From Marinifilum sp. D714 (GTDB lineage: Bacteria; Bacteroidota; Bacteroidia; Bacteroidales; Marinifilaceae), in NCBI RefSeq assembly GCF_030851345.1, contig NZ_JALPNU010000008.1, positions 62,001-126,000 of the forward strand: a stretch of DNA of 64,000 bases. Direction: 5' to 3'. The translations under genes were made by a program, and so were the position numbers. The notes beneath the pieces were generated by a model, which was given only the letters and a program-made list of their open reading frames with translations, did not search any database and was not told where the DNA came from. Shown in pieces: positions 39,834-64,000 of the stretch; the first letter of the stretch is position 1, and the number at the start of each line of letters is the position of its first letter.

Positions 39834-40802
39834 CTATAATGAATTCTTCTTCAAGAAATCAATAATCTCATCCACATATCCAAAAGCCATACCTACAACC
39901 GTGTCGGCAGCTCCATAGTAGATCGCAACTTTGTTATCTTCCATTAGGGCAGCACATGGGAATACTACATTTGGTACATCACCTACCAATTCGTAAGGTG
40001 CCGCAGGAGCCAATAAATATGGCTTAGAACGGTACAATACTTTATCAGGATTTTCCAAATCCAATAAAGCTGCTCCCATTGAGTAACGGAAGCCATTACA
40101 GGTATTGATTACCCCGTGATAGAACATCAGCCAACCCTCTTCGGTGCGTATGGGTACGGAACCAGCGCCAATTTTGGTACACTGCCATGCACTATCGGTA
40201 AAATCAGCTACTTTCATTACACAACGGTGCTCTCCCCAGTATTTCATATCAGGACTATAAGAGATGTAAATATCACCGAAAGGTGTATGGCCATTATCAC
40301 TCGGACGACTCAACATGGCATATTTACCATCAATTTTTTCGGGAAGCAACACACCATTTCTATTGAAAGGAAGAAATGCATTCTCGCACTGGTGAAAAGT
40401 CTTAAAATCGAAAGTATATGCAATACCAATAGTTGGTCCGTGATATCCATTACACCAGGTAATCCAGTATCGGTCTTCGATCCAGCAAACGCGTGGATCA
40501 TACTTGTAATCCGATTCAATCATTTCGGTGTTACCAGCCACCATTTCAATGGGATCATGATTGATTTCCCAATTGATTCCATCCTTACTGAAACCAGCAA
40601 AAATATTCATTTGTACCGCTTTGTTATCACAACGGAATACTCCTGCGAAACCATCTTCAAAAGGGACAACTGCACTATTAAAAATACTGTTAGAACTAGG
40701 TATATCGTACCTACCAATTACAGGATTTTGAGAATATCTCCACATCACATCCGAACATCCTTCAGGACGTTCCTCCCACGGCATATTAACTTGTTTTGTC
40801 AT
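39834..40802 (-). CDS. GH130 beta-mannoside phosphorylase, probably acting on beta-1,4-mannosyl-GlcNAc
   Basis: 322 residues, no signal peptide, so cytoplasmic. The five-bladed propeller pattern of GH130 is visible: [88 protein letters not shown]. Length and motifs suit the subfamily of Bacteroides enzymes that phosphorolyse Man-beta-1,4-GlcNAc to mannose-1-phosphate and GlcNAc. As the last gene of an N-glycan locus with alpha-mannosidases and PNGase F, this is the logical substrate; the subfamily assignment itself is inferred from context and length. It follows the symporter gene by 6 nt. Confidence 0.88.
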
Positions 40803-40808
40803 TTGATT

Positions 40809-42689
40809 TTACACTAATTCAGTTTCTTTAATTTCTTCTTTTTTCACTTCGCATTTGTAATCATCCGGATAGTCTTTCAACTTCTTGTACCAAGTAAAGT
40901 ATAACACAACACTCGAAACGACAAACAGCACAATTACCCATGTTAGCGACATGAATTCACCAATCACCAAATAAATTGGAATTAGAACCAACATCATTTG
41001 CCATCCTGTACCTATTGTACAGTTCATCATATCTCTCCAAAAATCATTATTTGGCTTGGCTTCTGGCTTTTGTTCTTTCAGTTTCAGGTAAACTGGCTTC
41101 CAAAATCCCCAAGGGCGAACACTATCGTAGAATTTAATCAGCACTTCATCTGGTTCTGGTTTGGTCACCAAACTGCCAATAATAGAGGCTGCCAATGCAA
41201 ACACGAAAATAAAAGGAAATGCATAAATAGGCGAAACCTCAGGAAAAACCAGTGGTGCAATTAATGATGCCAACAAACCAGCTAACATGCCTGTAAAGTA
41301 GCCATATCCATTAAATCTCCACCAAATCCATTTTAACAGATTGGAAGCAGTATAACCTCCAAACAATGCACCTACCAACCATTTCATTACTGTATCGATA
41401 CTTTCGGCAAAGAATCCGAAGAAAATACCAACTGCAACTACAGCAAATGATGCCAAATACGACATTCTAATGTACTTCTTTTGCGATGCATTAGGATTGA
41501 TAAATTTCTTATAAATATCATTCACAATATAAGCTGGACCCGCATTTACATTTGCAGCAAAGGTTGACATGAATGCTGCTACCAAACCAGCCAACAACAA
41601 GCCTTTCGCTCCCATTGGAATGAAATTATTCAGTGCATAAGGGAGTACCATTTCAAAGTCTATATTGTCGCCCATCTTATTGAATTCAGGAGCAAGATAC
41701 ACCAAGGCAAGTACGGCCAGGCCAGTAATCATCAAATATCTTGGAACAAAAAGTACCAAAGAAACAATACCACTCATTTTAGCTGCATCTTTAGGTGTTT
41801 CTGTCGATAAAATTCTTTGCATATCGTAACTTGGCACAGGACCTGCAATACTTACCAACATTCCTTTGAATATCATCATCATCATCAATACTGAGAACAA
41901 TGAATAGCCATCTGTTTCAATTTTGTTGTTTACTGCTGGTATCAAATGGTCCCAGTTCAAATCCAGATTCCAACCAAAGAATACATCTTTCCAACCTTCA
42001 GGAATTGCAGCTGATATTTGTTCAGGAGTCACCAAGGACATGGCAATTACACCTACCATGATACAGGCGATCGTCATAATTACAAATTGTAAAACTTCGG
42101 TAAATACCACCGAATACATCCCTCCTTTTATCACATAAAGTGTAGTTACACCCATAATGATTATGGCATACATATTTTCCGAACTAATGGTAATTCCCAT
42201 CAAATAGGTTTGCAGATTCCAAGGAAAAAATGTTTGCGCAAATTTTCCTACTCCAACAAATCCATAGGTTATGAAACCAATTACACTAACAATGGCAAAT
42301 AGCACCACAATCAGGTGAGATAATTGTGAACCTCTGTCATCTCCAAATCTGGTTTTTAACCACTCGGCCCCAGTCATAACATTCGATCGGCGCAACCAAA
42401 TGGCAAGAAACATCATCAAGAAAATCTGGTTCCAAACCGGCCACAACCAAGGAATCCAAACTGATTTCAAACCATATACAAACAGTATGGTTACCGTCCA
42501 CATGGTACCGGTAATATCGAACATTCCCGATGCATTGGAAACTCCAAGCATGTACCAGGGAATTTTATTTCCTCCCAGGAAATAGTTCGATAAGTTTTTT
42601 GATGCTTTTGCCGACAACACGTAACCAATTACAATGGTTAGAACAATGTATCCTATAATGATGGATATGTCGAGTACTGATAGATTCAT
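40809..42689 (-). CDS. Sodium:solute symporter (SSS/SLC5 family), probable sugar importer
   Basis: 626 residues with about 14-15 membrane helices. The start DISIIIGYIVLTIVIGYVLSAKASKNLSNYFLGGNKIPWYMLGVS and the segment YVIKGGMYSVVFTEVLQFVIM are hallmarks of SSS carriers; AAFMSTFAANVNAGPAYIVNDIYKKF contains the conserved Na2-site region. The family couples Na+ entry to sugar or other solute uptake. Its place between GH92 and GH130 genes suggests it imports mannose or the Man-GlcNAc core made in the periplasm, for the cytoplasmic GH130 enzyme. The C-terminal cytoplasmic tail is charged (KCEVKKEEIKETE). Confidence 0.9.
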   Translation of the reverse strand: MNLSVLDISIIIGYIVLTIVIGYVLSAKASKNLSNYFLGGNKIPWYMLGVSNASGMFDITGTMWTVTILFVYGLKSVWIPWLWPVWNQIFLMMFLAIWLRRSNVMTGAEWLKTRFGDDRGSQLSHLIVVLFAIVSVIGFITYGFVGVGKFAQTFFPWNLQTYLMGITISSENMYAIIIMGVTTLYVIKGGMYSVVFTEVLQFVIMTIACIMVGVIAMSLVTPEQISAAIPEGWKDVFFGWNLDLNWDHLIPAVNNKIETDGYSLFSVLMMMMIFKGMLVSIAGPVPSYDMQRILSTETPKDAAKMSGIVSLVLFVPRYLMITGLAVLALVYLAPEFNKMGDNIDFEMVLPYALNNFIPMGAKGLLLAGLVAAFMSTFAANVNAGPAYIVNDIYKKFINPNASQKKYIRMSYLASFAVVAVGIFFGFFAESIDTVMKWLVGALFGGYTASNLLKWIWWRFNGYGYFTGMLAGLLASLIAPLVFPEVSPIYAFPFIFVFALAASIIGSLVTKPEPDEVLIKFYDSVRPWGFWKPVYLKLKEQKPEAKPNNDFWRDMMNCTIGTGWQMMLVLIPIYLVIGEFMSLTWVIVLFVVSSVVLYFTWYKKLKDYPDDYKCEVKKEEIKETELV

Positions 42690-42707: not shown

Positions 42708-44948
42708 TTACTTGCTTGATTTTAATTCAAACTCAATTGTTCCACCTTTTACCAAATCGGAATGATTGATAAAGTAGCGGGAATGATTTGAACCATTTCG
42801 TTTAATGCTTTTGATGTAAATATCATCAGCACTCCCCTTCTTCGAAAGGATTTCCAGTTTCTTTCCAGGATAAAATTCTTGATTCAGTTCAATGGTAATT
42901 TTATCAAAAATTGGTGAGCTTAGTGCGTATTCTGTATTACCCGGACAAACAGGATACATTCCCATCATGCTGTAAACGATCCAAGCCGAAAGTGTTCCAC
43001 AATCGTCGTTACCCGGAATTCCATCAGGTGCATTTTTATAATATTTATTAATCAAGCGGCGAACTTCTTTCTGAGTTCTCCACTCTTCACCTTTAAAATA
43101 GTTGAATAGAAATGGGTAATGAATGTCTGGTTCGTTAGCCATGTCGTAAAGATTCTCATCGAATACTTTCTGAAGCTTGTTTACGAACTTCTTTTTGCCT
43201 CCCATTAACTTGGTCAACCCTTTGATATCATGTGGCACACAAAAAGTATATTGCCATGATGTTCCTTCATGGAATCCGGGACATGGTTCAAAGTTTTCTC
43301 CTTGCTTCGGATCAAAATTCTTCAGGAAAGTACCATCGGCCAGTTTAGGTCTTAATACTCCAAATTCTTTTGAATAGTAGTTTTTATATCCTAAAGATTG
43401 ATTTAAAAACTTCTGGTAGTCTGCTTTCTTTCCCAATGTCTTTGCAAATTGAGCCAAATTCCAATCGGCAATGTAATATTCCAATGCATGCGATACCGAA
43501 TTATCATATTCCTCTTCAATTGGCACATATCCTTCTGCCAGGTAATGATCGATATCGGGACGCAACTTATTTTTTGCTCCTTCTATGGTAGCCGATTTAT
43601 ACATTGCTTCGTAGGCTGCTTCCACATCGAAATCAGTTAATCCGCGCAAGTAAGAATCAACAATTACCGGAATTGACGGATCACCTTCCATTACATGTGT
43701 TTCCTTTGAATTTAGTTCCCATTTAGGTAACCAGCCACTTTCCTTGTACATGTCTACCATCGAGCGAACCATATCCAATTGTTCCTGTGGATAAAGCAGA
43801 GCCATTAACGGGTGAAAGTTTCGGTAGGTATCCCAAAGAGAAAATACCGTATATCGATTGCAATCTTTTGTTTCTTTAATCTCAAAAGATTCCATAGCCG
43901 GATATTGTCCATTGACATCGTTGATGATATTCGGATGAATTTGAGTATGATACAAAGCCGTGTAGAAAATGGTTTTCTGATCTTTTGTTCCACCTTCAAC
44001 CTTAACTCTACCTAAAATATCGTTCCACTCTTTTTCAGCTTGTACTCTTGTTTTCTCAAAATCAAAATCATTCGACTCAGCTTTAAGGTTTAATCTAGCA
44101 TTCTCGATGCTAACATAGGAAACTCCAACTTCTACAATAATTTCTTCATTATCTTCGGTATCGAAAGTGAAGTAGGCTCCAATTTCATTGCCATACATTT
44201 CGCGGGCAAACCCATCGTAGTATTTGTATTCCCCTGAAGTTTTGCTCCAAGCTGACTCTGCCTGTAGCTCCGGCATATTTTTCCATACTCCGAATTTCTT
44301 TGCAGGCTTGCTAAATCTGGCCACAAAATAAACCGGACGTTCCGACCCATCATTGTAGCAGAAAGTGCCTGTCATTCTTGAACCTTCAATTTCTTTGTCA
44401 TTAACGATTCTTATCTTGGCACCTACCTCATTGGTCAATCCTAAACCTAGGTTTAATAGAATATTCGATTCTCCTTTTGGAAAAGTATAACGGCTGATTC
44501 CTGTTCGTTTTGTAGAACTCAATTCTGCCTTGATATGGTACTTTTCAAGTTCTGTAGCATAATAACCAGGTGTTGCTTCCTGATTTTTCATTACAGAACC
44601 ATATTGCTTGTGATCTGCATTGACCTTTCCTGTTGTAGGCATCAATAAAATAACACCAAGTTCCGGACAACCTACTCCGCTCAAATTTACGTGAGAAAAT
44701 CCTGTAAGGTAAGAGTTATCCCATGAGTATGGTGTTGACCACCAACGTGCATCCTTATCGTATTTATTGATATCAGATCCGGAAACATTAAAGGGAGTTA
44801 CGGAAACCATTCCGCGGGGAACTACAGCTCCAGGATTTGTAGTCCCAAAATTCGTAGTTCCAATAAAGGGATTTACATACTCGGTATATTGGCCAAAGCC
44901 GTTAAAACAAAAAAACAGTAGAATTGAAATTCCTATAAAGCGTTTCAT
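42708..44948 (-). CDS. GH92 alpha-mannosidase, third copy of the locus
   Basis: 746 residues with a signal peptide MKRFIGISILLFFCFNGFGQ (no lipobox, so periplasmic). GH92 marks: YVNPFIGT, SGVGCPELGVILLMPT, SLWDTYRNFHPL, EGTSWQYTFCVPHD (with the general-acid Glu region), PGNDDCGTLSAW (calcium/base region) and SMMGMYPVCPGNTEY. At the subsite motif it reads ANEPDIHYPF with Glu606, different from the other two copies. GH92 enzymes are calcium-dependent inverting exo-alpha-mannosidases with alpha-1,2, 1,3, 1,4 or 1,6 specificity; which linkage is cut cannot be settled from sequence alone. A terminator-like stem lies upstream, after GH97. Confidence 0.92.
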   Translation of the reverse strand: MKRFIGISILLFFCFNGFGQYTEYVNPFIGTTNFGTTNPGAVVPRGMVSVTPFNVSGSDINKYDKDARWWSTPYSWDNSYLTGFSHVNLSGVGCPELGVILLMPTTGKVNADHKQYGSVMKNQEATPGYYATELEKYHIKAELSSTKRTGISRYTFPKGESNILLNLGLGLTNEVGAKIRIVNDKEIEGSRMTGTFCYNDGSERPVYFVARFSKPAKKFGVWKNMPELQAESAWSKTSGEYKYYDGFAREMYGNEIGAYFTFDTEDNEEIIVEVGVSYVSIENARLNLKAESNDFDFEKTRVQAEKEWNDILGRVKVEGGTKDQKTIFYTALYHTQIHPNIINDVNGQYPAMESFEIKETKDCNRYTVFSLWDTYRNFHPLMALLYPQEQLDMVRSMVDMYKESGWLPKWELNSKETHVMEGDPSIPVIVDSYLRGLTDFDVEAAYEAMYKSATIEGAKNKLRPDIDHYLAEGYVPIEEEYDNSVSHALEYYIADWNLAQFAKTLGKKADYQKFLNQSLGYKNYYSKEFGVLRPKLADGTFLKNFDPKQGENFEPCPGFHEGTSWQYTFCVPHDIKGLTKLMGGKKKFVNKLQKVFDENLYDMANEPDIHYPFLFNYFKGEEWRTQKEVRRLINKYYKNAPDGIPGNDDCGTLSAWIVYSMMGMYPVCPGNTEYALSSPIFDKITIELNQEFYPGKKLEILSKKGSADDIYIKSIKRNGSNHSRYFINHSDLVKGGTIEFELKSSK

Positions 44949-45134: not shown

Positions 45135-47147
45135 TTAATTCACAACAGGAACAATTGCAACTGCCTGACCACCACTTTCAATCATTTTTACAGGCAACAC
45201 AGTTTTCGAATCAACCTCTACTTTTCGAATATTAATATCTGTAGGGTTATTTTCGAGATTTGCATTATCTCCATCCTCAAAAATGCTAGCCATATACTTT
45301 CTACCATCCTCTAAAAAGGATAACTCAATTTCAGTATTTCGACTGTTCTCGTCGGTAACGGTTCCAATATACCAGCTCTTTCCTTTGCGGCGTGCAACCG
45401 AATATACATCTCCAATTTCTGCCAATAGTACTTTTGATTCATCAAAGTCGGCAGGAAGCATTTCAAAGAATTTAAAAGCTGGCTGATCTTCATAATTACT
45501 TACCAGATCTGATGCCATTTGCAAAGGACTGTACAGACAAACCCAAAGGGCCAATTGTTTGGCAAGCGTTGTATTCACTCGGCTATTTCCTTTATCATTG
45601 CTGTTCCATTTGGTGTATTCCTTCCTGTTTTTGTAAAGAATATCAAATGTACCTGGTGTATAATCAATAGGTCCACCCAGGCATCTGGTAAAAGGAAGAA
45701 TCACGTAATGCTCCGGAGGATTTCCTTCGCTCCAACCATTCCACTCCATTCCTCGTGCACCTTCGCGAGTCATCATGTTGGGATAAGTACGGCTGATCCC
45801 AGTTGCTTTAATCGGTTCATGAGCGTCGATCATTAAATTGTACTTTGCAGCCTTTTCCACAACCTTTCTGTAGTGTTGTACCATCTTCTGTCCATGATGG
45901 TAATGACCATTTGGTATTGGACCGGCATATCCAGTTTTTAGAACTCGAATACCATTATCTCTTAGCATGGAAAAAGCCTTGTCCATGCACTCCTCATAGT
46001 AAATATAGTCGCCACCAGTTTCATGATGTCCAATCAGTTCCACACCTTTTGCATTTGCATATCGAACCACCTCATCAAAGTCAAAGTCAGCATAAGGAGT
46101 TTGCTGGTCAAAAGCACGTGCTTTCCCCCAATTTTCCCAACCTGTATTCCATCCTTCGGCAAGCACTGCCTGAACATTGTGATCGGCAGCAAAATCGATA
46201 TAGTTTTTCATATTTTCGGTAGTGGCACCATGTTTTGGACCCATGGTCCAGGTTTCTACACCAAGATGCATTCCCCACCATATTCCAATGTACTTCATGG
46301 GTTCAATCCAAGATGTATCATCCAATGCACATGGATCGTTTAAATTTTGAATCAAATTCGATTCAACCAAACCCGCTGCCGATTTGCTTATGGTAATGGT
46401 TCTCCATGGTGATTTTACACTTCCTTTGGCTTTTACCTTCACACCATCGGGCCATGGCACCAGTTCTGCCTGGAAATTTGTACCTCCAGTATTTTTCAAG
46501 GTCATACCTGCATAATCCGTCAGGTTTGCCTCATGGATACTTAAATAAACTCCATCATTGGTTTTGAAGGTTACAGGAGTATTGGCCCCTTTTACCTCAT
46601 CAATTTTAGTAGTTTGATATAGCATCTCATAGCTATCGAAATTAGCAGGAATAGACCAGGCTGTACCATTTTGAGCCAGGTTAAACTCTGTCTTTTCATC
46701 GGTAATGAAAATGCTATCTATACCTGTTTGCTCAGGAATTTTATATCTGAAACCAACACCATCATCATATACTTTCACTTGTAATTGAAGTTGTAGTCCT
46801 TTTGAGGTAATCAAATCTAAAACCAACTGATTATAGTTGTTTTTGATTCTTTTGTTTTGGCCCCACACAGCACTCCAAACCTCATCAACTTCTACAATTT
46901 TCTTATCAACGATCTTTACTTTTTCGATAGAAAGCCTGCTCTGTGTAGCTTCCAAGCCAAGTTTAGATTCATTAATCAACTTAGCTTGTCCCAATAGTAA
47001 TTCATAGGACAGATGACCTTGATCGTTAACGTGTAATTCATACTTCAATTCTCCATTGGGAGATTTCACCTCCACTCTATTATCCAAAGAACAGGATAAA
47101 CTCATCAATCCAGCGCACAAAGCGAGGAATACTACTCTTACTCTCAT
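45135..47147 (-). CDS. GH97 alpha-glucosidase-type enzyme, inverting-type signature
   Basis: 670 residues. Lipoprotein signal MRVRVVFLALCAGLMSLSC. N-terminal beta-sandwich (SPNGELKYELHVNDQGHLSYEL) and catalytic barrel with AEGWNTGWENWG, GHHETGGD (Glu376), LKTGYAG (Gly406), DAHEP (Glu444) and REGARGMEWN. In GH97, retaining alpha-galactosidases carry an Asp nucleophile where this protein has Gly406, while inverting SusB-like alpha-glucosidases have Gly there and use glutamates. Hence an inverting alpha-glucosidase is likely. It follows GH65 by 3 nt. In an N-glycan locus it could remove alpha-1,3-glucose from glucosylated high-mannose glycans; that is inference. Confidence 0.9.
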   Translation of the reverse strand: MRVRVVFLALCAGLMSLSCSLDNRVEVKSPNGELKYELHVNDQGHLSYELLLGQAKLINESKLGLEATQSRLSIEKVKIVDKKIVEVDEVWSAVWGQNKRIKNNYNQLVLDLITSKGLQLQLQVKVYDDGVGFRYKIPEQTGIDSIFITDEKTEFNLAQNGTAWSIPANFDSYEMLYQTTKIDEVKGANTPVTFKTNDGVYLSIHEANLTDYAGMTLKNTGGTNFQAELVPWPDGVKVKAKGSVKSPWRTITISKSAAGLVESNLIQNLNDPCALDDTSWIEPMKYIGIWWGMHLGVETWTMGPKHGATTENMKNYIDFAADHNVQAVLAEGWNTGWENWGKARAFDQQTPYADFDFDEVVRYANAKGVELIGHHETGGDYIYYEECMDKAFSMLRDNGIRVLKTGYAGPIPNGHYHHGQKMVQHYRKVVEKAAKYNLMIDAHEPIKATGISRTYPNMMTREGARGMEWNGWSEGNPPEHYVILPFTRCLGGPIDYTPGTFDILYKNRKEYTKWNSNDKGNSRVNTTLAKQLALWVCLYSPLQMASDLVSNYEDQPAFKFFEMLPADFDESKVLLAEIGDVYSVARRKGKSWYIGTVTDENSRNTEIELSFLEDGRKYMASIFEDGDNANLENNPTDINIRKVEVDSKTVLPVKMIESGGQAVAIVPVVN

Positions 47148-47150
47148 AAA

Positions 47151-49190
47151 TTAATTTTCAATCACATATGTTTTCTTATCACAACCAATCCCTTTAATGG
47201 TCAAGCTTCTCCACTGTTTTGGAAGACATGTACTACCCTGCTCAATTCCCTCGTCGGTTATTTTTAGGCCTGCAAAACCAAAAATCACAGATTGCAGCAT
47301 ACCTCCCGCACCCGTTCCAAAGTATGGGTTGTTACTAAATACCGATTCAGCCAAAGCTCCAAAAGGAGGTCTTTTATTTGGTTCGTAAGCTCTTTTAAAT
47401 AACTCGAATGCCTTATCCGCTTCTCCCAATCTGGCATAAAGAACAGCCAATACGGAATGAGACATGGCTGGTCCTTCCGGTGCCATTTTTGGCTCATAAT
47501 AAGCCAAGTCCCTGCGAATATCTTCAGGCTTACTCACGATATTCAGTGGATATGCCAATAAATTCACATCAGCCTGTTTGATTACCTCCCCATTGTAGGT
47601 TCTGTTTTCTCTCATTGTTCCATTGTGGAAATAATGAAATCGCAAAGTCTGAGACACTTTACTCCACTGATTATTTGGAGGCAAGCCAAGCTCCTTTGCC
47701 GCTTTCACTGCATATTCCAATGCTGTTTTTGCAGCTCCGTTGGTAAATGCATTGTCATCAGCATGATGATAAAACTCATTGGCTCCCACCACATTATTGA
47801 TGGAATATGAACCATCTTCATTTTTAACAGATCGACTCACCCAAAAATCAGCCACCTCTTTCAATACCGGAAAACCAACTTCCTTCAACCACTGTTTGTC
47901 TTTACTTAGCCTGTAGTAGTTCCAAAAGGCAATGCCAATATCAGCAGTAATATGATGTTCGAAAGTTCCCGTTAAAGCCCAGGTTGGAGTTGCCTCCTCA
48001 CCTGTATCATCAGACTCCCAGGGAAACATGGCTCCCTCATATCCAAAGTTGGCAGCTTTCTTTTTTGCCTTTTCAAGCCTGTGAAATCTATAGTTTAAAA
48101 GTGAATGGGCAATATCCTGATTAAACACTAACAAAGGCGGATACATCCACAATTCTGTATCCCAGAAAACATGTCCGTTGTAGCCTTGAGCCGATAAGCC
48201 CATTGGCGGGATACTCAAATTTGAATCATCTCTCGAGAAAGAATACAAGTGATACAAAGCCAAGCGAACATCCTGCTGAGACTCTATATCTCCTTCAATT
48301 ACAATATCACCTTGCCATAATTCTTCCCACAGCTCCTGGTGTCTTTCGATTACTGATTCTTTATTTCCCAACAGCTGAAAAACAACCATTCTTTCAGACT
48401 CACTCTTGGGATCATCAAAATTTTGAGAGGTACAAACGGCCCCAGCCCAGGCAAAGCAATACTTCTCCCCTTTTTTCAACTCCTTTGTAAAAACCAACTC
48501 ATGATGATATGCCCCTTTTACGCTGTGCTTTAATTCCGGTGTTTCCTCTTCGAAAATAAATGTAGCAGAAGTAGCCATTTGATGTTTTCCAAAAGGACTA
48601 TCAGCTATGGTTTGAAGAACTGGCATTCTGGCATCCAAATCCTGCATTACACGGAAACCAGACTCAACATTTTTATATTCGTTAGGACAAACGATTTGTC
48701 CCCCTACCTGCACTTTCAAATTTCTGATCAATGGAATAATCTCAACATCGATCATGCCTGTATAAGGCATGCCTCGCAAAGCATATAAAGTGAAAGAAAA
48801 ATCAGCATAATTCTTAAACCTGCAGGTGCTTGTTAAAGCTGCATTTTTCATATCCAACTTTTGAGTCCATGAGGTGCAATTGTCAGCTTTTAATGTATCC
48901 CCTTCAATAACAATCTCAAGGTTTGCGAAATTAATACCCAATAAAACCTTACTCACACCATATTTTGACTCTTTATCGAAAACATGATTTAAAATAATGG
49001 CTTTCGTTTTGCCTGGTTCTTTGGATGGCAACAGACCTATGCGTCCATTGGCAATGGCAACACCTGTATAATCAGAGTAATCATTTGTTTCAATTACCCA
49101 CCCTGCTTCTTGTTTTGTTTGTGCATTCACACCAAAGCTAAACACAACACACAAGACAAAAAGAAATAGATATCGATAGTATGTATTCAT
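47151..49190 (-). CDS. GH65 alpha-glucoside hydrolase or phosphorylase, exported
   Basis: 679 residues with signal peptide MNTYYRYLFLFVLCVVFSFGVNA. GH65 features are an N-terminal beta-sandwich (NGRIGLLPSKEPGKTKAIILNHVFD), then an (alpha/alpha)6 barrel with GYNGHVFWDTELWMYPPLL, GAMFPWESDDTGEEATP and NVVGANEFYHHADDNAFTN, in which Glu472 is the general acid. Most GH65 members are cytoplasmic phosphorylases, but an exported protein would lack phosphorylated intermediates' benefit, and a Flavobacterium GH65 is known as a kojibiose (alpha-1,2-glucose) hydrolase. A periplasmic alpha-glucosidase is therefore favoured. It sits between GH125 and GH97 with 2-3 nt gaps. Confidence 0.88.
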   Translation of the reverse strand: MNTYYRYLFLFVLCVVFSFGVNAQTKQEAGWVIETNDYSDYTGVAIANGRIGLLPSKEPGKTKAIILNHVFDKESKYGVSKVLLGINFANLEIVIEGDTLKADNCTSWTQKLDMKNAALTSTCRFKNYADFSFTLYALRGMPYTGMIDVEIIPLIRNLKVQVGGQIVCPNEYKNVESGFRVMQDLDARMPVLQTIADSPFGKHQMATSATFIFEEETPELKHSVKGAYHHELVFTKELKKGEKYCFAWAGAVCTSQNFDDPKSESERMVVFQLLGNKESVIERHQELWEELWQGDIVIEGDIESQQDVRLALYHLYSFSRDDSNLSIPPMGLSAQGYNGHVFWDTELWMYPPLLVFNQDIAHSLLNYRFHRLEKAKKKAANFGYEGAMFPWESDDTGEEATPTWALTGTFEHHITADIGIAFWNYYRLSKDKQWLKEVGFPVLKEVADFWVSRSVKNEDGSYSINNVVGANEFYHHADDNAFTNGAAKTALEYAVKAAKELGLPPNNQWSKVSQTLRFHYFHNGTMRENRTYNGEVIKQADVNLLAYPLNIVSKPEDIRRDLAYYEPKMAPEGPAMSHSVLAVLYARLGEADKAFELFKRAYEPNKRPPFGALAESVFSNNPYFGTGAGGMLQSVIFGFAGLKITDEGIEQGSTCLPKQWRSLTIKGIGCDKKTYVIEN

Positions 49191-50689: not shown

Positions 50690-50703
50690 GATCAGTTATC
50701 GAC

Positions 50704-52365: not shown

Positions 52366-52374
52366 AGACTTGTA

Positions 52375-52473: not shown

Positions 52474-52487
52474 CCCAAATTAGTGGA

Positions 52488-57361: not shown

Positions 57362-57384
57362 TATATGATGATTAATCGCTACTA

Positions 57385-59247
57385 CTAGTCAACATTCCAA
57401 GTAATACCTCTCATCTCTCCATGATAGTTACCGGTAACATCTTTAAACTTAACACCACCAACTTTATTTAGTGGGAAATAAGCATTTAGTCCAGCCTCAG
57501 TACCATCGATATCTGCATCTAAATCAGCAGCATCGCGTGCAACATCCCATAGACGGAAATCTTTGATAGAACCATGCATTTTACCCCAACCGTTTCCAAG
57601 CCACATTTCTCCCCAACCTGAAACTTCAGGAGCTCCTATATCGGTTTGAACACCTTTTTCTTCGCCATCAACATATAAAGTTGTTGTTCTAGCTGTGTTA
57701 TCATGAACGATAGCAACATGCTGCCACACCCCAGACTTGATTGAAAGTGCTTCAGCTTTTGGTCCTTGCCAGCCACTTCCTGCATTGGTAAAGTTCCAAA
57801 GTCCACCTGATGACAATAATGCCTCTTCAGTTAACTCCGTGTAACCATAAACCCAAATACCGTAGTTACCATTGTTAAAGAATTCTCCTGTTCCGTACAT
57901 ACCCAATGACTTCACACGCACATCAAACTCAACAGTGTAATCTCCTTGTGGAGTGTAGTTAGGTGTAATTCTGAAACCTATTGCATCTGAATCATCACGA
58001 TCAACATATACACCTGTTGCGTCAGCTACTAAATATTCTTTTACCAATTCTATTTTTGCCTCTATCGCATCAGCAAGATCAACAATTTCATCTTGACGTT
58101 TTGCATTAGCAATTTTATCATCAGCATCATTTGCCAATGACTGTAAATAATCTTTAGTTCCAACAGGATAATCTCCGGTATTAGTTCCCTCAACAACCTC
58201 ATCTTTCAATGTCAATGCGTTTGTTTTTGCTGTTGTTAAAGTAGAGTAATCCAATTCTATTACAGGAGGAATTCCATCAACTAACCAGCTAACTTCACCT
58301 TTTAATGTTGCTGTATATGTATTGGTATTGTCTTTGAATTCTGTTCCCAAATCAGCATTAAATGGGAAAAACATTGCCAAATTCTCCTCTGTTCCTTCCA
58401 ATATTGCCTCTTTGTTATCATCAATTTGAGCTGCTGTTCTGGCACCTTTCCAAACTCTTACATCCTTCATCATACCATTCATTACACGGTCGGACCAAGT
58501 TGGACCATTTCCTAACCAAAATGATGCCTCTGGAGCTGGTTTATAACCTTTCTCCTGAGAAAGAACTTCAGCACCATTCACATACAATTTCTGACTGGTA
58601 ATTTCATTCACAAAAGCAATATGCATCCATTCTCCGGCACGAATCACGCCACCTCCGGTTTCAATGGTATTCCAACCACTACCGTCACCAACATTCAAGT
58701 GGATGTTACCATCACTAAAATAACGGATTACAAAACCACTGTCAGGACCTGATTGCTCAGTAGCAAAAATATTATTTGAATAACCTCTTTGATCTAAGTC
58801 TACAACATACATCCAACACTCAATAGTAAAACTCTCTTTAAATATTGGTAGGATATTATCAGAAATACCAATGTAAGTATTGTTACCCTGAGCAATGTAA
58901 GGAATAGCCAGTTTTACAATGTTTCCTTTGAATTTATCGATGTAAATCTGAAGTTTTGTTGCCGCATCGGTAACATCACTCTGATCTTTTGCGCGGGCCA
59001 TTTTCCAATCTACCCAGTTCAAAACATCCTGTAATTCTTTTTTCGATCCCGGCTTGAATTTCCCTGGTGTTGTACCCTCTTCGCTATTGGCAATTAAATC
59101 ATTTGCCTCAGTTATTAATTGCGTTAATGATGCAAGATCAACATTTCCTGCACTCTTATCATCATCGTCACAAGCTGCAAGGCCAAATAGCATTACAACT
59201 ACAGTAAGCATGGATAAGAATTTTATATGTATTTTATTTGTTCTCAT
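57385..59247 (-). CDS. LamG-domain surface lipoprotein, probable glycan-binding protein of the locus
   Basis: 620 residues. Lipoprotein signal (MLTVVVMLFGLAACDDDDKS; the acidic residues after Cys favour surface display). The protein is an internal duplication: a helical FIVAR-like segment (about 38-110) then a LamG/concanavalin-like domain (about 115-325), and again a helical segment (about 330-400) then a second LamG domain (about 405-620). Parallel motifs are PYIAQGNNTYIGISDNILPIFKESFTIECWMYV and TGVYVDRDDSDAIGFRI...YTVEFDVRV, with GEWMHIAFVNEI and SGVWQHVAIVHD. By position after SusC/SusD it should be the surface glycan-binding protein. No catalytic residues are evident, so binding rather than cleavage is proposed. 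Confidence 0.85.
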   Translation of the reverse strand: MRTNKIHIKFLSMLTVVVMLFGLAACDDDDKSAGNVDLASLTQLITEANDLIANSEEGTTPGKFKPGSKKELQDVLNWVDWKMARAKDQSDVTDAATKLQIYIDKFKGNIVKLAIPYIAQGNNTYIGISDNILPIFKESFTIECWMYVVDLDQRGYSNNIFATEQSGPDSGFVIRYFSDGNIHLNVGDGSGWNTIETGGGVIRAGEWMHIAFVNEITSQKLYVNGAEVLSQEKGYKPAPEASFWLGNGPTWSDRVMNGMMKDVRVWKGARTAAQIDDNKEAILEGTEENLAMFFPFNADLGTEFKDNTNTYTATLKGEVSWLVDGIPPVIELDYSTLTTAKTNALTLKDEVVEGTNTGDYPVGTKDYLQSLANDADDKIANAKRQDEIVDLADAIEAKIELVKEYLVADATGVYVDRDDSDAIGFRITPNYTPQGDYTVEFDVRVKSLGMYGTGEFFNNGNYGIWVYGYTELTEEALLSSGGLWNFTNAGSGWQGPKAEALSIKSGVWQHVAIVHDNTARTTTLYVDGEEKGVQTDIGAPEVSGWGEMWLGNGWGKMHGSIKDFRLWDVARDAADLDADIDGTEAGLNAYFPLNKVGGVKFKDVTGNYHGEMRGITWNVD

Positions 59248-59317: not shown

Positions 59318-60889
59318 TTAAAAGTTACTATTCATTAATCCTCCGGATTTTTCCTTAGTGTCAGCAGTATCCCACCACAAACGAATATCCATACGGTCAG
59401 TATCTTTAGTGTTCAATGCTGATGGAATGTTTGCACCGTTTTGCTCATGCTGATTGTTTGGGTAACGAATACGCTTCACCCAAGTGTTAGCGGCCACAGT
59501 TGAACTACCACTAACTCCGTCAAGAGGTAGAGAAATATCAGGATAATCCGTTCTACGAAAATCGGCCCAACCTTCAACACCATTCGGGAAGTTAGCAATC
59601 CATTTTTGAGTAATAATCTGCTTTAGCTTGTTTTCATCAGAACCATCAAGATTTGTTAATCCATTAATGTAATCCGTAGCATCTGAAGAAGAAACACCCA
59701 CGTAGTCCATTGAAGCCTGCACTCCAGCTAAGTAAAGCGCATTTGCATCTTCACTAATCCATCCTCTAAGTGCTGCTTCCGCTTTTAAGAATTGTACTTC
59801 CGAGAAGAACATTACAGGACAATACATTTTGTGTTCTTTGCCATCACCTGCAAAATCAATGTAGCCGCCCGATAAATTAATAGTTGCAAAATCCTCTTTT
59901 ACCTTTGCAGGAACAGTATTGTAACCATTCTCCAATCCGTAGTATTTTTCTTTACCAACCTGCTCTTTAGTCTGTCCAACTTTTTCATCATCTACAGTTC
60001 TTTGGTAAGTAAACCAGAATGGTGTTCTTGGATCTTCACCCACAGTTGATGTATTGTACAAGTAGTCAGACATTGTTTTCGACATGCGAATGTTGTTCCA
60101 GCTCCAACCCATTTGGTGCAAGTAGTCATTCCAACCTTTGCTCCACATAGGAACTTTAACAACGTCTGCATTTGAATCAAAAACTCCACCTGGTCCGTTA
60201 ATTGCAGCCAATGCTTCTGTTTTTGCTTTTTCAGCATCAACATTTGAAATTCTCATTGCCAATCTCAAACGAAGTGAGTTACCAAATTTTCTCCACTGTA
60301 GTGCATCTCCATCATAAATCAAATCATATCCGTCTGAGTACTCATACTGAGCAGCATCACCTGTAATGCTGTTTACAGCATTGTCCAAACGCTTAAATAA
60401 ATCTGTATATACCTCGCTCTGGGTACTGTAAACTACAGATTCACCTTTACCAACTCCAAAGTAAGGAACATCACCATATGAGTCAGTAATACGTGACCAG
60501 AAGTAACACATCCAAATTTCCTTGATTGCAATAGCATCTACATAATAAGGATCATCACCATAAGCATCGCTAATTGCGATTGACTTAGGCACCTGACTAG
60601 TATAGAACTCTTTCCACTGATTTCCGATCCAACCATCAACATATTCGTAACGTGGAGAACCAAATCCAGAAACCGTATTTGCCCAGTATTGAGAATATAA
60701 ATCAGGATATAAGTTTACATTTCGCTGATAGTTAGCAAATACCTGCATTTGCATATCATGAAGAAAGAATCTTGGTTCAACCTGTGTTGCTGAATCCGAA
60801 GGAACATTCATATCTCCAAAATCATCGGAACAAGCTTGGCTAAACAGCAGTATTCCAAGCAGTGCGTATATATAATTATTAAATTTCAT
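59318..60889 (-). CDS. SusD-like outer-membrane glycan-binding lipoprotein (SusD/RagB family)
   Basis: 523 residues. Lipoprotein signal MKFNNYIYALLGILLFSQAC, then SDDFGDMNVPSDSATQVEPRFFLHDMQMQ, of the SusD-like_2 type. The TPR-like helices are typical (QWANTVSGFG is seen as QYWANTVSGFG; LRLRLAMRISNVDAEKAKTEA; VMFFSEVQFLKAEAALRGW) and the end is NTWVKRIRYPNNQHEQNGANI. It caps the SusC transporter and captures glycan at the cell surface. The start is 18 nt after the SusC stop, the usual arrangement. Ligand specificity cannot be read from sequence; the locus argues for N-glycan oligosaccharides. Confidence 0.95.
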   Translation of the reverse strand: MKFNNYIYALLGILLFSQACSDDFGDMNVPSDSATQVEPRFFLHDMQMQVFANYQRNVNLYPDLYSQYWANTVSGFGSPRYEYVDGWIGNQWKEFYTSQVPKSIAISDAYGDDPYYVDAIAIKEIWMCYFWSRITDSYGDVPYFGVGKGESVVYSTQSEVYTDLFKRLDNAVNSITGDAAQYEYSDGYDLIYDGDALQWRKFGNSLRLRLAMRISNVDAEKAKTEALAAINGPGGVFDSNADVVKVPMWSKGWNDYLHQMGWSWNNIRMSKTMSDYLYNTSTVGEDPRTPFWFTYQRTVDDEKVGQTKEQVGKEKYYGLENGYNTVPAKVKEDFATINLSGGYIDFAGDGKEHKMYCPVMFFSEVQFLKAEAALRGWISEDANALYLAGVQASMDYVGVSSSDATDYINGLTNLDGSDENKLKQIITQKWIANFPNGVEGWADFRRTDYPDISLPLDGVSGSSTVAANTWVKRIRYPNNQHEQNGANIPSALNTKDTDRMDIRLWWDTADTKEKSGGLMNSNF

Positions 60890-60907: not shown

Positions 60908-63900
60908 TTAAAAACCAAGATTAAGTGAAAATCCGTATGTACGAACAGATGGTACCGGAGCAAAGTCATAAGCCTGAGCTAAGTAACTTGAGCTGTATGC
61001 ACTTGCATCTGGTGCAGTTCCAGGAGTGTTCTTATGAAAGTAGAAAAGGTTACGACCGATAAGTGACACTCTTGCTGACTGAATAGGATTATTGGGAATT
61101 CTATTTAAAATTGATTTTGGAAGATTGTAACCAATTGCAAGTTCTTTTAGTTTAACATGAGAGGCATCATAAAGAAATTCTTCGTCAGCCTGAGCAACTT
61201 TTCTCCAATAATCCTGAGCCGAAACCATTACATTGTTCGCACCACCATCAGAGGTTACACCGTCAACAAATAATGCCATTCTGTTGTTCTGAGCTGTACG
61301 CTCTGCCGTACCTGAAGAAACAGCAGCTTGTTCTGAAGTAGATAGAATGTCACCACCCTGCTGGATAGATACCAAAGCAGATACATAGAATCCTTTGTAT
61401 TCAGCATTCAAATTGATTGCTCCTGTCCAGTCAGGCTGAACATTACCAAGAATGTTGTGCTCTTCATTGGATAATTTCATTAATCCTTTGTCGTCAACAA
61501 TGATTTGGTCCTTTTCGTTTCTTTCATATTTAGAACCTCTGATGATACCCAATCTCTTACCTGGTAATCCAACAAAACCTTCGTTGTCTTCAAACTTGTA
61601 AACCGGCATATCTTCGTAAAGTTCCTCCAGGGTTCCTTTGTTCTTTGCAAAGTTGAAACCTAAAGTCAATTTGAAGTCTTTTGTTTTAACCGGTACAGTT
61701 GTCAACATTACCTCAACCCCTTCGTTACGAATCAAACCTGCGTTGATCAAACGGTATGGATAACCAGTTGTCTGGTCAGTAGCCAATTTCAAGATCTGAT
61801 TCTTAGTATCTTCCTGGTAATAAGTAAAATCTAATCCAATTCTATTCTTGAACAAACGGATATCAGTACCAACTTCCCAAGAAGTAGAAATTTCAGGCTT
61901 AAGATCTTTGTTCACCAATACTTCAGGCACTTTTCCTTTTGAAAGGTCAAAGTCACCACTTTCAATCTTGTAAGTCTGACTTGTTTGGTATGGATCAGCA
62001 GCCTTACCTACCTGTGCAACAGAACCTCTAATTTTAGCATAAGAAACAAATTCCGGTAATTCGAACATCTCTGATAACAGAGCACTTAAACTAACCGATG
62101 GATAGAAATATGAATTGTCAAATTCAGTATCTGCTGATGTAAGCGTTGAAGACCAGTCGTTACGAGCTGTGAAATCAAGGAAAATCATATTCTTATATGC
62201 TACCTGACCAAATCCGTACATTGATCGCACCTCTGATTCTGTAATGCTCTCAACAGCTTTAATATTTGATCCCGCACCCAAATAAAAATCATCTTCAGAT
62301 GAAAGCTTACCAGAGAAAGATCTTAACTGCTTAAAGTGACGCTTCATTGTATTTGCACCAACATTTAAGCTAATAGTAAAGTTTTCGTTCAAATCTTTAT
62401 TATAAGACAACAAGAACTCGTAGTTCTCTTCTTTGAAGTTCGATTGAGTTGGATTATAATCCGGACGGTTTGGATTGATGTTATCAGCGTACTGGTATCC
62501 ATCTAAAGATTCAAACTGGAAGAAATCCATACCATACTTAAACTTTGCTTTCAAGTCTGATGTTAGTTTTACATTTGCTGCAACGAAACCAAAAGTTCTG
62601 TTCTTCTTATCGTTGTTCACATATTGCTCCTGTAGGAAGTACGGGTTTCTGTTTCCCGGGCTCGCATCTGAGTAAATCTTCTCAACATGCTTACCAGCAA
62701 TAATATCGTATCCCGGTTTCAAATCCTGTGTACGAATATTTCGAGGCATTGTATTGAAGTAGCTTACATAACTGTAATTTCCCACTTCTGGTCTCTGCTT
62801 TCCTTCTGTAAGGAAAAAAGATAACTTAGTATCAATGTTTAACCATGAGTTGATATCATAGTCTGCACGCAAATCAAATGTTGTTTTTTCAACCTCGTGA
62901 TTGTCATAGATACCATTGATGATATCCTTACCCAAAGACATTCTGAATGCACCTTCGTCATTTCCACCTGAGAAAGAGATGTTATGCTTATGAGTGATTC
63001 CTGTTCTTGTGAAATCCTCCAACAGGTTACCCTGATCTTCGAAAGAAGTCATTTCTCCTGTCCATGATTCAACCTGCTGGCCTGTCATTTCAGGTCCCCA
63101 TGAAGAAGTTTCATCAGCATAATATTCACCATTGATACCTTGACCATATTTATCCTGAAGATCCAACATGTAAGCAGCTTCAGAGAAAGTCATGCTTCCT
63201 GAATAGTTAATACCTAAACCTTTGTTGCGTTTTCCTTTTTTGGTAGTTACTAAAATTACACCGTTACCACCACGCTCTCCATATAGAGCTGCAGCATTGG
63301 CACCTTTCAGTACAGAAACTGATTCAATATCATCCGGATTTAGATCAAAAGCACCACCTGCTCTTGAGGTACCCCCCCAAACTGATCCATCGTTTGAGTT
63401 TCCATTATCGAAAGGTACTCCATCAACAATCCACAATGGCTCATTGTTACCAACAAGTGAACTTACACCTCTAATATCAATTCTAGAGGAACCACCAACA
63501 CCACCTCCGGTTTGATTGATTTGTACACCGGCAACTTTTCCTTGTAATGAACTCACAAGGTCGCCATCACCACCTTTGGTTAAATCATCAGCTTTAACAT
63601 CCTGCACTGCATAACCTAAAGCTTTCTTTTCTCTTTTAATACCAAGAGCTGTAACAACTACCTCATCTACCTGCAAAGCATCAGCTGCCATAACAACATC
63701 AATTACAGATTGAGATCCTACTGTAATTTCCTGAGTTGTCATTCCAACAAAACTAAATACCAATACACTTGATTCGTCGGCAGCAATTTGAAATTTACCT
63801 TCAACATCAGTTACAGTACCAACTGTTGTACCTTTTACAACCACAGACACACCAGGTAGTGACATTCCAGACTCTTCAATTACCGTACCTGTCACAGTTT

Positions 63901-64000
63901 TCTGCACAGCTACGGTTGAATTGTCTTCAAATAAACTGTTAACGTTTGCATTTGCAGCAAATGGCGAACCTAAAACCGCAACTAGCAAAGCTAAACTACT
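60908..64000 (-). CDS. SusC-like TonB-dependent outer-membrane transporter, 5' end cut by window
   Basis: The frame is still open at base 64000 (SSLALLVAVLGSPFAANA), so only part of a signal peptide is missing; at least 1030 residues are visible. After the signal come a carboxypeptidase-regulatory-like domain (VTGTVIEESGMSLPGVSVVVKGT), the TonB-box-like DEVVVTALGIKREKKALGYAVQ, the plug (QGKVAGVQINQTGGGVGGSSRIDIRG, NGVILVTTKKGK) and a 22-strand-type barrel ending VRTYGFSLNLGF. There is no STN domain between the signal and the regulatory-like domain, so control by an ECF sigma/anti-sigma pair is unlikely. It imports glycans with SusD. The usual Met start lies outside the window. Confidence 0.95.
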   Translation of the reverse strand, partial: SSLALLVAVLGSPFAANANVNSLFEDNSTVAVQKTVTGTVIEESGMSLPGVSVVVKGTTVGTVTDVEGKFQIAADESSVLVFSFVGMTTQEITVGSQSVIDVVMAADALQVDEVVVTALGIKREKKALGYAVQDVKADDLTKGGDGDLVSSLQGKVAGVQINQTGGGVGGSSRIDIRGVSSLVGNNEPLWIVDGVPFDNGNSNDGSVWGGTSRAGGAFDLNPDDIESVSVLKGANAAALYGERGGNGVILVTTKKGKRNKGLGINYSGSMTFSEAAYMLDLQDKYGQGINGEYYADETSSWGPEMTGQQVESWTGEMTSFEDQGNLLEDFTRTGITHKHNISFSGGNDEGAFRMSLGKDIINGIYDNHEVEKTTFDLRADYDINSWLNIDTKLSFFLTEGKQRPEVGNYSYVSYFNTMPRNIRTQDLKPGYDIIAGKHVEKIYSDASPGNRNPYFLQEQYVNNDKKNRTFGFVAANVKLTSDLKAKFKYGMDFFQFESLDGYQYADNINPNRPDYNPTQSNFKEENYEFLLSYNKDLNENFTISLNVGANTMKRHFKQLRSFSGKLSSEDDFYLGAGSNIKAVESITESEVRSMYGFGQVAYKNMIFLDFTARNDWSSTLTSADTEFDNSYFYPSVSLSALLSEMFELPEFVSYAKIRGSVAQVGKAADPYQTSQTYKIESGDFDLSKGKVPEVLVNKDLKPEISTSWEVGTDIRLFKNRIGLDFTYYQEDTKNQILKLATDQTTGYPYRLINAGLIRNEGVEVMLTTVPVKTKDFKLTLGFNFAKNKGTLEELYEDMPVYKFEDNEGFVGLPGKRLGIIRGSKYERNEKDQIIVDDKGLMKLSNEEHNILGNVQPDWTGAINLNAEYKGFYVSALVSIQQGGDILSTSEQAAVSSGTAERTAQNNRMALFVDGVTSDGGANNVMVSAQDYWRKVAQADEEFLYDASHVKLKELAIGYNLPKSILNRIPNNPIQSARVSLIGRNLFYFHKNTPGTAPDASAYSSSYLAQAYDFAPVPSVRTYGFSLNLGF

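What the first reader, a model, noticed from the sequence alone, without database searches (positions are those of the whole stretch)
39834..64000. N-glycan utilization locus that also carries two alpha-glucosidase families (GH65, GH97)
Seen: SusC/D, a LamG binding protein, GH92 x3, PNGase F, GH125, GH65, GH97, SSS and GH130, all on one strand with very short gaps in most places. Known: PNGase F frees N-glycans, GH92 and GH125 trim alpha-mannose, GH130 phosphorolyses Man-beta-1,4-GlcNAc. Inference: GH65 (with kojibiose-hydrolase-like members) and an inverting GH97 glucosidase could remove the alpha-1,2- and alpha-1,3-glucose caps of immature Glc1-3Man9GlcNAc2 glycans, so the organism may feed on glucosylated high-mannose glycans such as those of algae or other eukaryotes. 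The locus lacks an endo-GlcNAcase (GH18) and GH20, so PNGase F replaces the usual release step.
Basis: partly seen in the sequence, partly recalled or inferred. Interest (0 to 1): 0.8.

Follow-up and report, generated by a model that had tools for sequence, protein, structure and literature searches.

The report
N-glycan locus with two alpha-glucosidases
A bacterium of the marine genus Marinifilum carries a gene set that looks made for eating the mannose-rich sugar chains of eukaryotic glycoproteins, and built into it are two enzymes whose predicted cuts fit the glucose caps that such chains carry while immature; the fit is good but untested.

Summary
In detail: twelve minus-strand genes encode SusC (cut by the window end), SusD, a LamG lipoprotein, three GH92, PNGase F, GH125, GH65, GH97, an SSS transporter and GH130, in a Marinifilum genome. 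GH65 passes NCBI's kojibiose-hydrolase cut-off and keeps 13 of 14 residues named for the solved alpha-1,2-glucosidase FjGH65A. GH97 groups with SusB-like alpha-glucosidases, not with alpha-galactosidases. GH65, GH97, GH130 and all three GH92 are in 15 of 15 family loci examined; PNGase F is in 4 of 15. Elsewhere in a phylum sample, 0 of 33 such GH65 lie near GH92, PNGase F, GH125, GH97 or GH130, and 0 of 26 loci with a close GH130 carry GH65 or GH97. The glucosidases are thus a lineage-specific, fixed part of this locus. Removing the alpha-1,2/alpha-1,3-glucose cap of Glc1-3Man9GlcNAc2 is the best single fit but unproven: the GH65 active site does not differ from that of GH65s in other contexts, and 10 of 16 genomes with this GH65 have no PNGase F, GH18 or GH85 match. 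Another alpha-glucosylated mannose glycan, or a merged alpha-glucan function, remains possible. A new variant of a known kind.

The parts
39834..40802 (-). GH130 phosphorylase, no signal peptide seen by eye; closest solved relative UHGB_MP (4udg, 515 bits)
40809..42689 (-). sodium:solute symporter (SSS), presumed inner-membrane importer
42708..44948 (-). GH92 alpha-mannosidase (GH92c); best solved relative 6f8z (429 bits)
45135..47147 (-). GH97 of the SusB-like alpha-glucosidase group; lipoprotein-like N-terminus
47151..49190 (-). GH65 kojibiose-hydrolase-type alpha-1,2-glucosidase; signal-peptide-like N-terminus
49193..50623 (-). GH125, predicted exo-alpha-1,6-mannosidase; Tat-like N-terminus
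50659..50690 (-). terminator-like intercistronic hairpin upstream of the GH125-GH65-GH97 unit; a matching hairpin lies directly upstream of GH65 or GH125 in 11 of 15 family loci including this one
50704..52365 (-). PNGase F, PNGF-II type with N-terminal domain
52488..54788 (-). GH92 (GH92b), very close to 2wvx, deposited as putative alpha-1,2-mannosidase (1141 bits)
54870..57146 (-). GH92 (GH92a); best solved relatives 7zgm (622 bits), 6f91 (615) and 6f8z (605), nearly tied
57385..59247 (-). LamG-domain protein with lipoprotein-like N-terminus, probable surface glycan-binding protein
59318..60889 (-). SusD-like outer-membrane lipoprotein
60908..64000 (-). SusC-like TonB-dependent transporter; its start lies 69 bases beyond the window end

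Best explanation
A high-mannose N-glycan utilization locus extended with an exo-acting deglucosylation module. Proposed order: SusC/SusD and the LamG lipoprotein capture and import the glycan or glycopeptide; in strains that have it, PNGase F frees the glycan from asparagine. In the periplasm GH65 removes a terminal alpha-1,2-glucose (as ER glucosidase I does) and GH97 the alpha-1,3-glucoses (as glucosidase II does), exposing Man9, which GH92 and GH125 strip to Man-beta-1,4-GlcNAc(2). The SSS transporter (or an MFS in relatives) imports this core and cytoplasmic GH130 phosphorolyses it. Shown by sequence: gene content, order, family and subgroup of each enzyme, conservation of the module. Inferred: localisation, linkage specificities, the order of events, and that the glucose comes from glucosylated N-glycan precursors or the free oligosaccharides derived from them.
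For: GH65 over the kojibiose-hydrolase cut-off (984 vs 800), with catalytic Glu472/Glu616 and the subsite -1 and +1 residues of FjGH65A conserved, 13 of 14 named residues. FjGH65A accepts kojibiosyl units with other linkages at the reducing side because subsite +2 is spacious (PMC8626586, passage). GH97 falls in the SusB-like glucosidase group; GH97s of that group cut alpha-1,2 and alpha-1,3 bonds, FjGH97A being good on nigerose (PMC10316084, passage). GH92b, GH125, GH130 and PNGase F have as close solved relatives enzymes of N-glycan or mannoside degradation. GH65, GH97, GH92a, GH92b, GH92c and GH130 in 15 of 15 family loci examined (14, and the window). GH125, GH65 and GH97 are separated by 2-3 nt. 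The only GH31 match in the genome lies within 4 kb of a GH65-family gene below the kojibiose cut-off, on another contig, so a separate alpha-glucan locus seems to exist.
Against: No activity or induction data. The GH65 active site gives no sign of a new substrate: none of the 14 residues sets the Marinifilaceae proteins apart from GH65s in other contexts. GH65 and GH97 are also less conserved in the family (median identity to the window 72% each) than GH92b (83%) and GH130 (91%). Outside this family the genes are not linked: 0 of 33 (GH65), 0 of 26 (close GH130 loci), 0 of 14 (GH97 loci). 10 of 16 genomes with the GH65 have no PNGase F, GH18 or GH85 match. Mature N-glycans seldom keep glucose. 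ER glucosidase I does not hydrolyse kojibiose and is inhibited by it (PMC8626586, passage), so a kojibiose hydrolase need not accept the N-glycan cap. The one other GH65-GH97-GH125 neighbourhood (L114, L116) lacks GH92, PNGase F and GH130, and the GH18 of L114 is chitinase-like.
Confidence: 0.5

Rival explanations
1. The target is a mature alpha-glucosylated, mannose-rich glycan of a marine organism (an algal, protist or invertebrate N-glycan, or an alpha-mannan with glucose side groups) and not the ER precursor. The same enzymes act, but the glucose is a normal decoration.
For: N-glycan structures of algae, protists and molluscs have only started to be explored and enzymes specific for them were yet to be discovered in the 2023 review (PMC10154615, passage). 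Members of the family were isolated from marine sediments (titles in the listing). GH65-GH97-GH125 also sits beside sulfatase and GH3 in two Flavobacteriaceae MAGs (L114, L116), which suggests a glycan with alpha-Glc and alpha-Man that is not a plain N-glycan.
Against: GH130 of the UHGB_MP group and PNGase F point to an N-glycan core. No sulfatase, fucosidase or xylosidase family was found among the 12 genes. No such glycan was met in the paper passages seen here.
Confidence: 0.22
2. A composite locus: GH65 and GH97 serve an alpha-1,2/alpha-1,6-branched glucan or kojibiose-type sugar, as in the F. johnsoniae dextran locus, and were merged into the N-glycan operon because both foods arrive together.
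For: FjDexUL pairs GH65 kojibiose hydrolase with GH97 (PMC10316084, passage). Among the 116 GH65 loci clustered, a gene of a GH13-like cluster lies within 6 kb in 16 and of a trehalase-like cluster in 15 (one representative of each named by Pfam), so alpha-glucoside use is a common role of this GH65 family.
Against: No GH66 or GH31 and no second SusC/D pair in the locus. The genome holds one GH31 match, on another contig. GH97 follows GH65 directly and both stay among the GH92 genes in 15 of 15 loci (and the window), which a loose merger would not predict.
Confidence: 0.2
3. The locus mainly feeds on free oligosaccharides set loose from dying eukaryotic cells (glucosylated Man-GlcNAc chains released from lipid or protein), and protein deglycosylation by PNGase F is a late addition in some strains.
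For: PNGase F is in 4 of 15 loci; 10 of 16 genomes with the GH65 have no PNGase F, GH18 or GH85 match, while GH65 and GH97 are in all 15. Secretion of free oligosaccharides by rat hepatocytes is the topic of PMC10912633 (search listing only).
Against: Unknown release enzymes of other families, or release by neighbouring microbes, would explain the same pattern. Whether PNGase F was gained or lost was not tested on a tree. Free glycans of marine eukaryotes were not examined. It overlaps the best explanation and differs only in the source of the glycan.
Confidence: 0.05
4. GH97 is an alpha-galactosidase that removes alpha-galactose caps from mannan, as a B. thetaiotaomicron GH97 does for S. pombe alpha-mannan; or GH65 removes glucose from Glc-alpha-1,2-Gal-hydroxylysine of collagen.
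For: The GH97 case is described in PMC10154615 (passage). The collagen glucosidase (9sd7 and related entries) is the second solved GH65 relative (217 bits).
Against: GH97 scores 199 bits against the retaining alpha-galactosidase 5e1q and 555 against 5hqc, and 311 against the NCBI alpha-galactosidase model whose cut-off is 800. GH65 scores 640 bits to FjGH65A against 217 to the collagen enzyme, and the +1 residues are those of kojibiose enzymes.
Confidence: 0.03

Closest known systems
High-mannose N-glycan locus of Bacteroides thetaiotaomicron (GH18 BT3987 with three GH92)
   Same: Three GH92; one GH92 is very close to 2wvx (1141 bits; that 2wvx is BT3990 of that locus is recalled). The review says that three GH92 in that operon act in sequence (PMC10154615, passage).
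   Different: PNGase F instead of GH18; GH130, GH125 and a transporter in the same gene row; GH65 and GH97 added. The B. thetaiotaomicron genome itself was not compared here.
FjDexUL, branched-dextran locus of Flavobacterium johnsoniae
   Same: Pairs a GH65 kojibiose hydrolase with a GH97 alpha-glucoside hydrolase (PMC10316084, passage).
   Different: No GH66 or GH31 here; partners are mannosidases, PNGase F and GH130. FjGH97A is a close SusB relative (69% identity, same paper), whereas this GH97 scores higher to 5hqc/5hq4 (555/554 bits; their identity as PspAG97A is recalled) than to SusB (458).
Sulfatase-free GH92-rich PULs of marine Bacteroidetes
   Same: GH92 with GH130 (PMC6794258, passage).
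   Different: Those are described with GH20 and GH18; the passages seen name no GH65 or GH97 in them, GH65 being placed there with GH13 in alpha-glucan PULs.
ER glucosidases I and II; bacterial GH99 endomannosidase
   Same: Known routes for removing N-glycan glucose; a Shewanella GH99 was active on glucosylated substrates (PMC11025385, passage).
   Different: No GH99 or GH63 domain among the 12 genes; here two exo-enzymes of other families would do the work. The rest of the genome was not searched for GH99 or GH63.

Membership tests
GH65 kojibiose hydrolase | score over the curated model NF053734 (800 bits) | tested here: met
   984 bits
GH65 kojibiose hydrolase | acid and base Glu472/Glu616, subsite +1 Trp391/Glu392/Thr407, phosphate site replaced | tested here: met
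   all present; 13 of 14 residues named conserved. Trp473 of subsite +2 is Phe, as in 65 of 102 rows from other contexts; Arg74 aligns with Lys
GH65 kojibiose hydrolase | hydrolysis of Glc-alpha-1,2-Glc | not testable with these tools
   needs purified enzyme
inverting GH97 alpha-glucosidase | groups with SusB-like enzymes and not with retaining alpha-galactosidases; active-site glutamates kept | tested here: met
   555 bits (5hqc), 458 (2d73, SusB), 199 (5e1q), 195 (3a24); one entry named alpha-glucosidase (5xfm) scores 78. Glu376, Glu444, Glu468 by alignment; their catalytic role and the inverting mechanism are recalled
inverting GH97 alpha-glucosidase | activity on alpha-1,3-glucose of N-glycans | not testable with these tools
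   needs assay
high-mannose N-glycan utilization locus | SusC/D pair with several GH92 including one of alpha-1,2 type | tested here: met
   (by homology)
high-mannose N-glycan utilization locus | N-glycan-releasing enzyme | tested here: met
   PNGF-II type PNGase F in the window; not met in 11 of 15 family loci
high-mannose N-glycan utilization locus | core Man-beta-1,4-GlcNAc phosphorylase (GH130) | tested here: inconclusive
   best relative UHGB_MP 515 bits (its action on the N-glycan core is recalled), but a mannooligosaccharide phosphorylase scores 449, and the three NCBI GH130 equivalogs matched are below cut-off
high-mannose N-glycan utilization locus | induction by, and growth on, high-mannose glycans | not testable with these tools
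   needs culture and RNA work
branched-dextran locus (FjDexUL type) | GH66 and/or GH31 dextranase | tested here: not met
   none among the 12 locus genes; one GH31 match elsewhere in the genome; GH66 not sought in the rest of the genome
retaining GH97 alpha-galactosidase | score over NF053844 (800 bits) | tested here: not met
   311 bits

The most novel reading that the evidence does not exclude
Marinifilaceae have assembled a bacterial counterpart of ER glucosidases I and II from GH65 and GH97, and use it in a locus dedicated to glucosylated N-glycan precursors, in most strains taken up as free oligosaccharides from dying eukaryotic cells, so that glucosylated immature glycans would be a regular marine carbon source.
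Probability: 0.3. Interest if true: 0.7.

Novelty: new variant of a known kind. Interest (0 to 1): 0.5.

Why it matters
If right, it gives a testable two-enzyme route by which bacteria open glucose-capped N-glycans, tools for trimming Glc1-3Man9 glycans in the laboratory, and a hint that immature or free eukaryotic glycans are a real marine food. The 2023 review of bacterial N-glycan enzymes mentions the three glucoses of maturing N-glycans, but the word glucosidase does not occur in its held main text (PMC10154615).

Tried and rejected
Alpha-galactosidase reading of GH97: rejected on scores. Collagen-glucoside reading of GH65: rejected on scores and +1 residues. Dextran reading: no GH66 or GH31 in the locus. 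A second lineage with the same locus: L114 and L116 looked like independent support (GH97, GH125, GH65, with GH18 in L114), but that GH18 is chitinase-like and GH92, PNGase F and GH130 have no match there, so I do not count them. L073 has a sub-cut-off GH65 relative with a GH92 about 4 kb away; its two relatives L071 and L072 show no GH92, and I do not use it.

The Fisher tests are not used, because the genomes are relatives and not independent. No structure prediction was run: the enzymes have close solved relatives, and by its stated rule the tool does not take the 842-aa protein, which lies outside the window. One of the five pieces scanned (L242:1-300) was an arbitrary stretch and is ignored. 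My frame picking hid the GH130 of L187 behind an overlapping frame; the GH130 frame is there. GH65 and GH97 frames are about twice as long and less likely to be hidden so, but this was not checked locus by locus.

Literature searches for kojibiose hydrolase with GH65, Glc1Man9GlcNAc2 with Bacteroidetes (16), N-glycan with GH65, GH97 and GH92 (43), glucosylated high-mannose with polysaccharide utilization locus (44), PNGase with GH92 and GH130 (69), Glc3Man9GlcNAc2 with bacterial glucosidase (70; 20 of 41 papers listed), Glc1Man9GlcNAc2 with mature glycoproteins (74), Marinifilum with PULs (76) and GH65 with GH92 and PULs (89) showed no report of this arrangement in the listings, or in the passages read. 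No paper was read whole. PMC12325347 reports 2,154 curated PULs from 79 Marinilabiliales genomes; its main text has no mention of GH65, GH92 or GH97, but its supplements could not be read, so the locus may be listed there.
Full report
WHAT IS THERE. The window is bases 62001-126000 of contig C94 of a 4.77 Mb genome in 105 contigs. On the minus strand from SusC (continuing past the window) down to 39834 lie twelve genes in the order SusC, SusD, LamG protein, GH92a, GH92b, PNGase F, GH125, GH65, GH97, GH92c, SSS, GH130. SusC starts 69 bases outside the window. Five of 11 gaps are 2-18 nt, the others 70-238 nt. The organism is a Marinifilum: the GH65 is 97% identical (best segment) to that of M. 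breve, and two genomes placed in its genus, G430 and G433, hold the locus on contigs of the same length as the named M. flexuosum and Marinifilum sp. D737 contigs.

THE TWO GLUCOSIDASES. GH65 scores 984 bits against NCBI's kojibiose hydrolase model (cut-off 800) and 640 bits against FjGH65A (7fe3), far above the collagen glucosidase (217) and kojibiose phosphorylase (196). Of the 14 active-site residues that I took from the passages of PMC8626586 shown, 13 are the same in the window protein; Trp473 of subsite +2 is Phe, as it is in all 24 Marinifilaceae rows (some organisms twice) and in 65 of 102 rows from other contexts. The general base Glu616 is present and the phosphate-binding serines are absent, so it should hydrolyse rather than phosphorolyse. 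The same residues are shared by GH65s outside N-glycan loci, so the active site does not by itself point to N-glycans. GH97 scores 555 bits against 5hqc, 458 against SusB and 199 against a retaining alpha-galactosidase, with one entry named alpha-glucosidase (5xfm) at only 78; it is far below the alpha-galactosidase model cut-off (311 vs 800). I recall 5hqc/5hq4 to be PspAG97A. The paper on FjDexUL says that PspAG97A is active on alpha-1,6 links and kojibiose, and FjGH97A best on alpha-1,6 links, then nigerose (PMC10316084, passage). Thus the pair could cover alpha-1,2 and alpha-1,3 glucose. This is inference from relatives; alpha-1,3 cleavage by this GH97 is not shown.

THE REST OF THE PATHWAY. 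GH92b is very close to 2wvx (1141 bits), deposited as putative alpha-1,2-mannosidase. GH92a is nearly equally near to 7zgm (622 bits), 6f91 (615) and 6f8z (605); 7zgm is an alpha-1,3-mannosidase for plant N-glycans (PMC9522356, passage). GH92c is more distant from all (best 429 bits). GH125 is close to BT3781 (658 bits; a named exo-alpha-1,6-mannosidase scores 426). PNGase F is of the PNGF-II type (456 bits). GH130 is closest to UHGB_MP (515 bits), with a mannooligosaccharide phosphorylase at 449 and TM1225 at 436, so the core-phosphorylase reading is likely but not settled by sequence. N-terminal sequences (read by eye) suggest lipoproteins for SusD, LamG, GH92a, GH92b and GH97, exported GH65, PNGase F and GH92c, a Tat-like signal for GH125, and no signal for GH130; no signal-peptide program was run.

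CONSERVATION. In the window's family, 16 of 56 genomes have a GH65 over the cut-off. I fetched the locus in 14 of the other 15 (G425, whose contig starts inside the gene, was left out). With the window that is 15 loci: GH65, GH97, GH92a, GH92b, GH92c and GH130 are in 15 of 15 (in L237 two GH92 reading frames are broken), SSS in 14, an extra MFS in 10, GH125 in 6, PNGase F in 4, GH20 in 2. Median identities to the window are 72% for GH65 and GH97, 83% for GH92b and 91% for GH130. Nine named loci (L104-L112) show the same arrangement as far as their contigs and flanks reach; several are the same organisms and are not added. PNGase F was sought in all 56 genomes: of the 16 with the GH65 it is found in 6, one of them a weak match (G425, 55 bits) and one a copy about 400 kb from the locus (G444). 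GH18 has no match in the own genome or in 14 of 15 relatives, the exception being G425, an assembly of 1180 contigs with 6% contamination; GH85 has none in 16 of 16. Ten of 16 genomes thus have no match to these three families.

CONTROLS. In a phylum-wide draw of 395 genomes (including the own one), 34 have a GH65 over the cut-off. The 33 others were examined in stretches of up to 20 kb, some short on one side at contig ends: 0 of 33 have GH92, PNGase F, GH125, GH97 or GH130 hits; two have weak SSS hits (55 and 57 bits). Three further loci with a GH65 relative below the cut-off were looked at too; one of them, L073, has a GH92 about 4 kb away. Close GH130 relatives (401 bits or more) occur in 26 other genomes of the draw; around them GH92, SSS, MFS, GH20, GH18 or GH125 are found in the closer ones and none of these in the more distant ones apart from one weak SSS hit, but GH65 or GH97 in 0 of 26 (some stretches end at contig ends; the GH130 of L187 was confirmed). 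Fourteen GH97 loci from 13 other genomes, the twelve best matches and two chosen a little further down the list, have no GH92, PNGase F, GH125, GH65 or GH130 nearby. So the combination is specific to this lineage in what was sampled, and the glucosidases are more stable in it than PNGase F.

TREES. The Marinifilaceae GH65 form one clade (support 1.0) inside an 18-row group (0.79) with L113, L115, the two NORP MAGs and four loci that carry GH65 beside SusC and SusD-like genes. The tree has 114 rows, being those with more than 500 bits and at least 600 aa. The GH97 of Marinifilaceae group with L210 (0.99), a same-order genome where GH97 lies away from N-glycan genes, and then the NORP MAGs (0.98) (26 rows). 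FastTree, midpoint rooting, no outgroup.

SURROUNDINGS. Divergent from SusC is an 842-aa protein with kelch-like matches that are all below Pfam's gathering scores, a hydrophobic stretch seen by eye, and a C-terminal part with only a weak, sub-threshold match to a winged-helix domain (E 0.052); it is found in 10 of 10 family stretches examined, as is a LacI-MFS-ROK block beyond it (the MFS match is weak, about 200 bits, in 4), with GH125 inside that block in 4 of 10. These are candidates for sensing and for uptake and phosphorylation of released sugars. The genome also has ten GH92 matches in all, one GH31 match near a GH65-family gene on contig C16 and a second close GH97 on C72.

JUDGEMENT. 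The locus is a real, conserved variant of a known kind. Deglucosylation of immature or free high-mannose glycans is the best single reading, because a kojibiose-type GH65 and a SusB-like GH97 match in type the two linkages of the cap, and because they stay among the GH92 genes in every family locus examined. It is not proven. The main rivals are an alpha-glucosylated mature marine glycan and a merged alpha-glucan function.

Noticed in passing
window 50659-50690 (-), and directly upstream of GH65 or GH125 in relatives: A 24-26 nt hairpin core of the GGCTT...RGCC type precedes the GH125/GH65 unit in 11 of 15 family loci, with differing but still paired stems; in the window it is followed by a T run, so it may be an attenuator that sets lower expression of the downstream genes.
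   Followed up: partly
window 57146-57385 and 52365-52488 (-): Strong inverted repeats also fill the LamG-GH92a gap and (with a long loop) the GH92b-PNGase F gap, each followed by T-rich sequence.
   Followed up: no
L006:6465-8993 (C94:126465-128993), just beyond the window end: 842-aa protein with sub-threshold kelch-like matches and a weak winged-helix match at its C-terminus, opposite SusC and present in 10 of 10 family stretches: candidate membrane-bound regulator of unusual layout.
   Followed up: partly
L006:9115-12384: ROK kinase, MFS transporter and LacI regulator next to the locus; in 4 of 10 relatives GH125 sits in this block, linking it to the N-glycan genes.
   Followed up: partly
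L105:6021-8444 and L106, same position: Two Marinifilum relatives have a GH20 between PNGase F and GH125, which could cleave the chitobiose left after PNGase F and GH130.
   Followed up: partly
L160, L176, L180, L181: GH65 kojibiose-hydrolase-type genes sit beside SusC and SusD-like genes, with no match there to the other sugar enzymes of my query panel: possible minimal kojibiose loci.
   Followed up: no
L114:2-13594 and L116: Flavobacteriaceae MAGs with GH3, DUF4838, GH97, an endonuclease/phosphatase-like gene, GH125, GH18 (L114 only), GH65 and sulfatase together: unknown glycan.
   Followed up: partly
L073:8605-16864: A GH65 relative below the kojibiose cut-off, an MFS transporter, a 642-aa gene and a GH92 in a row in another class of the phylum.
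   Followed up: no
window 21410-21606 (-) and 12501-12688 (+): Two cobalamin riboswitches, upstream of an anaerobic ribonucleotide reductase gene and of a permease/carboxyltransferase gene group.
   Followed up: no
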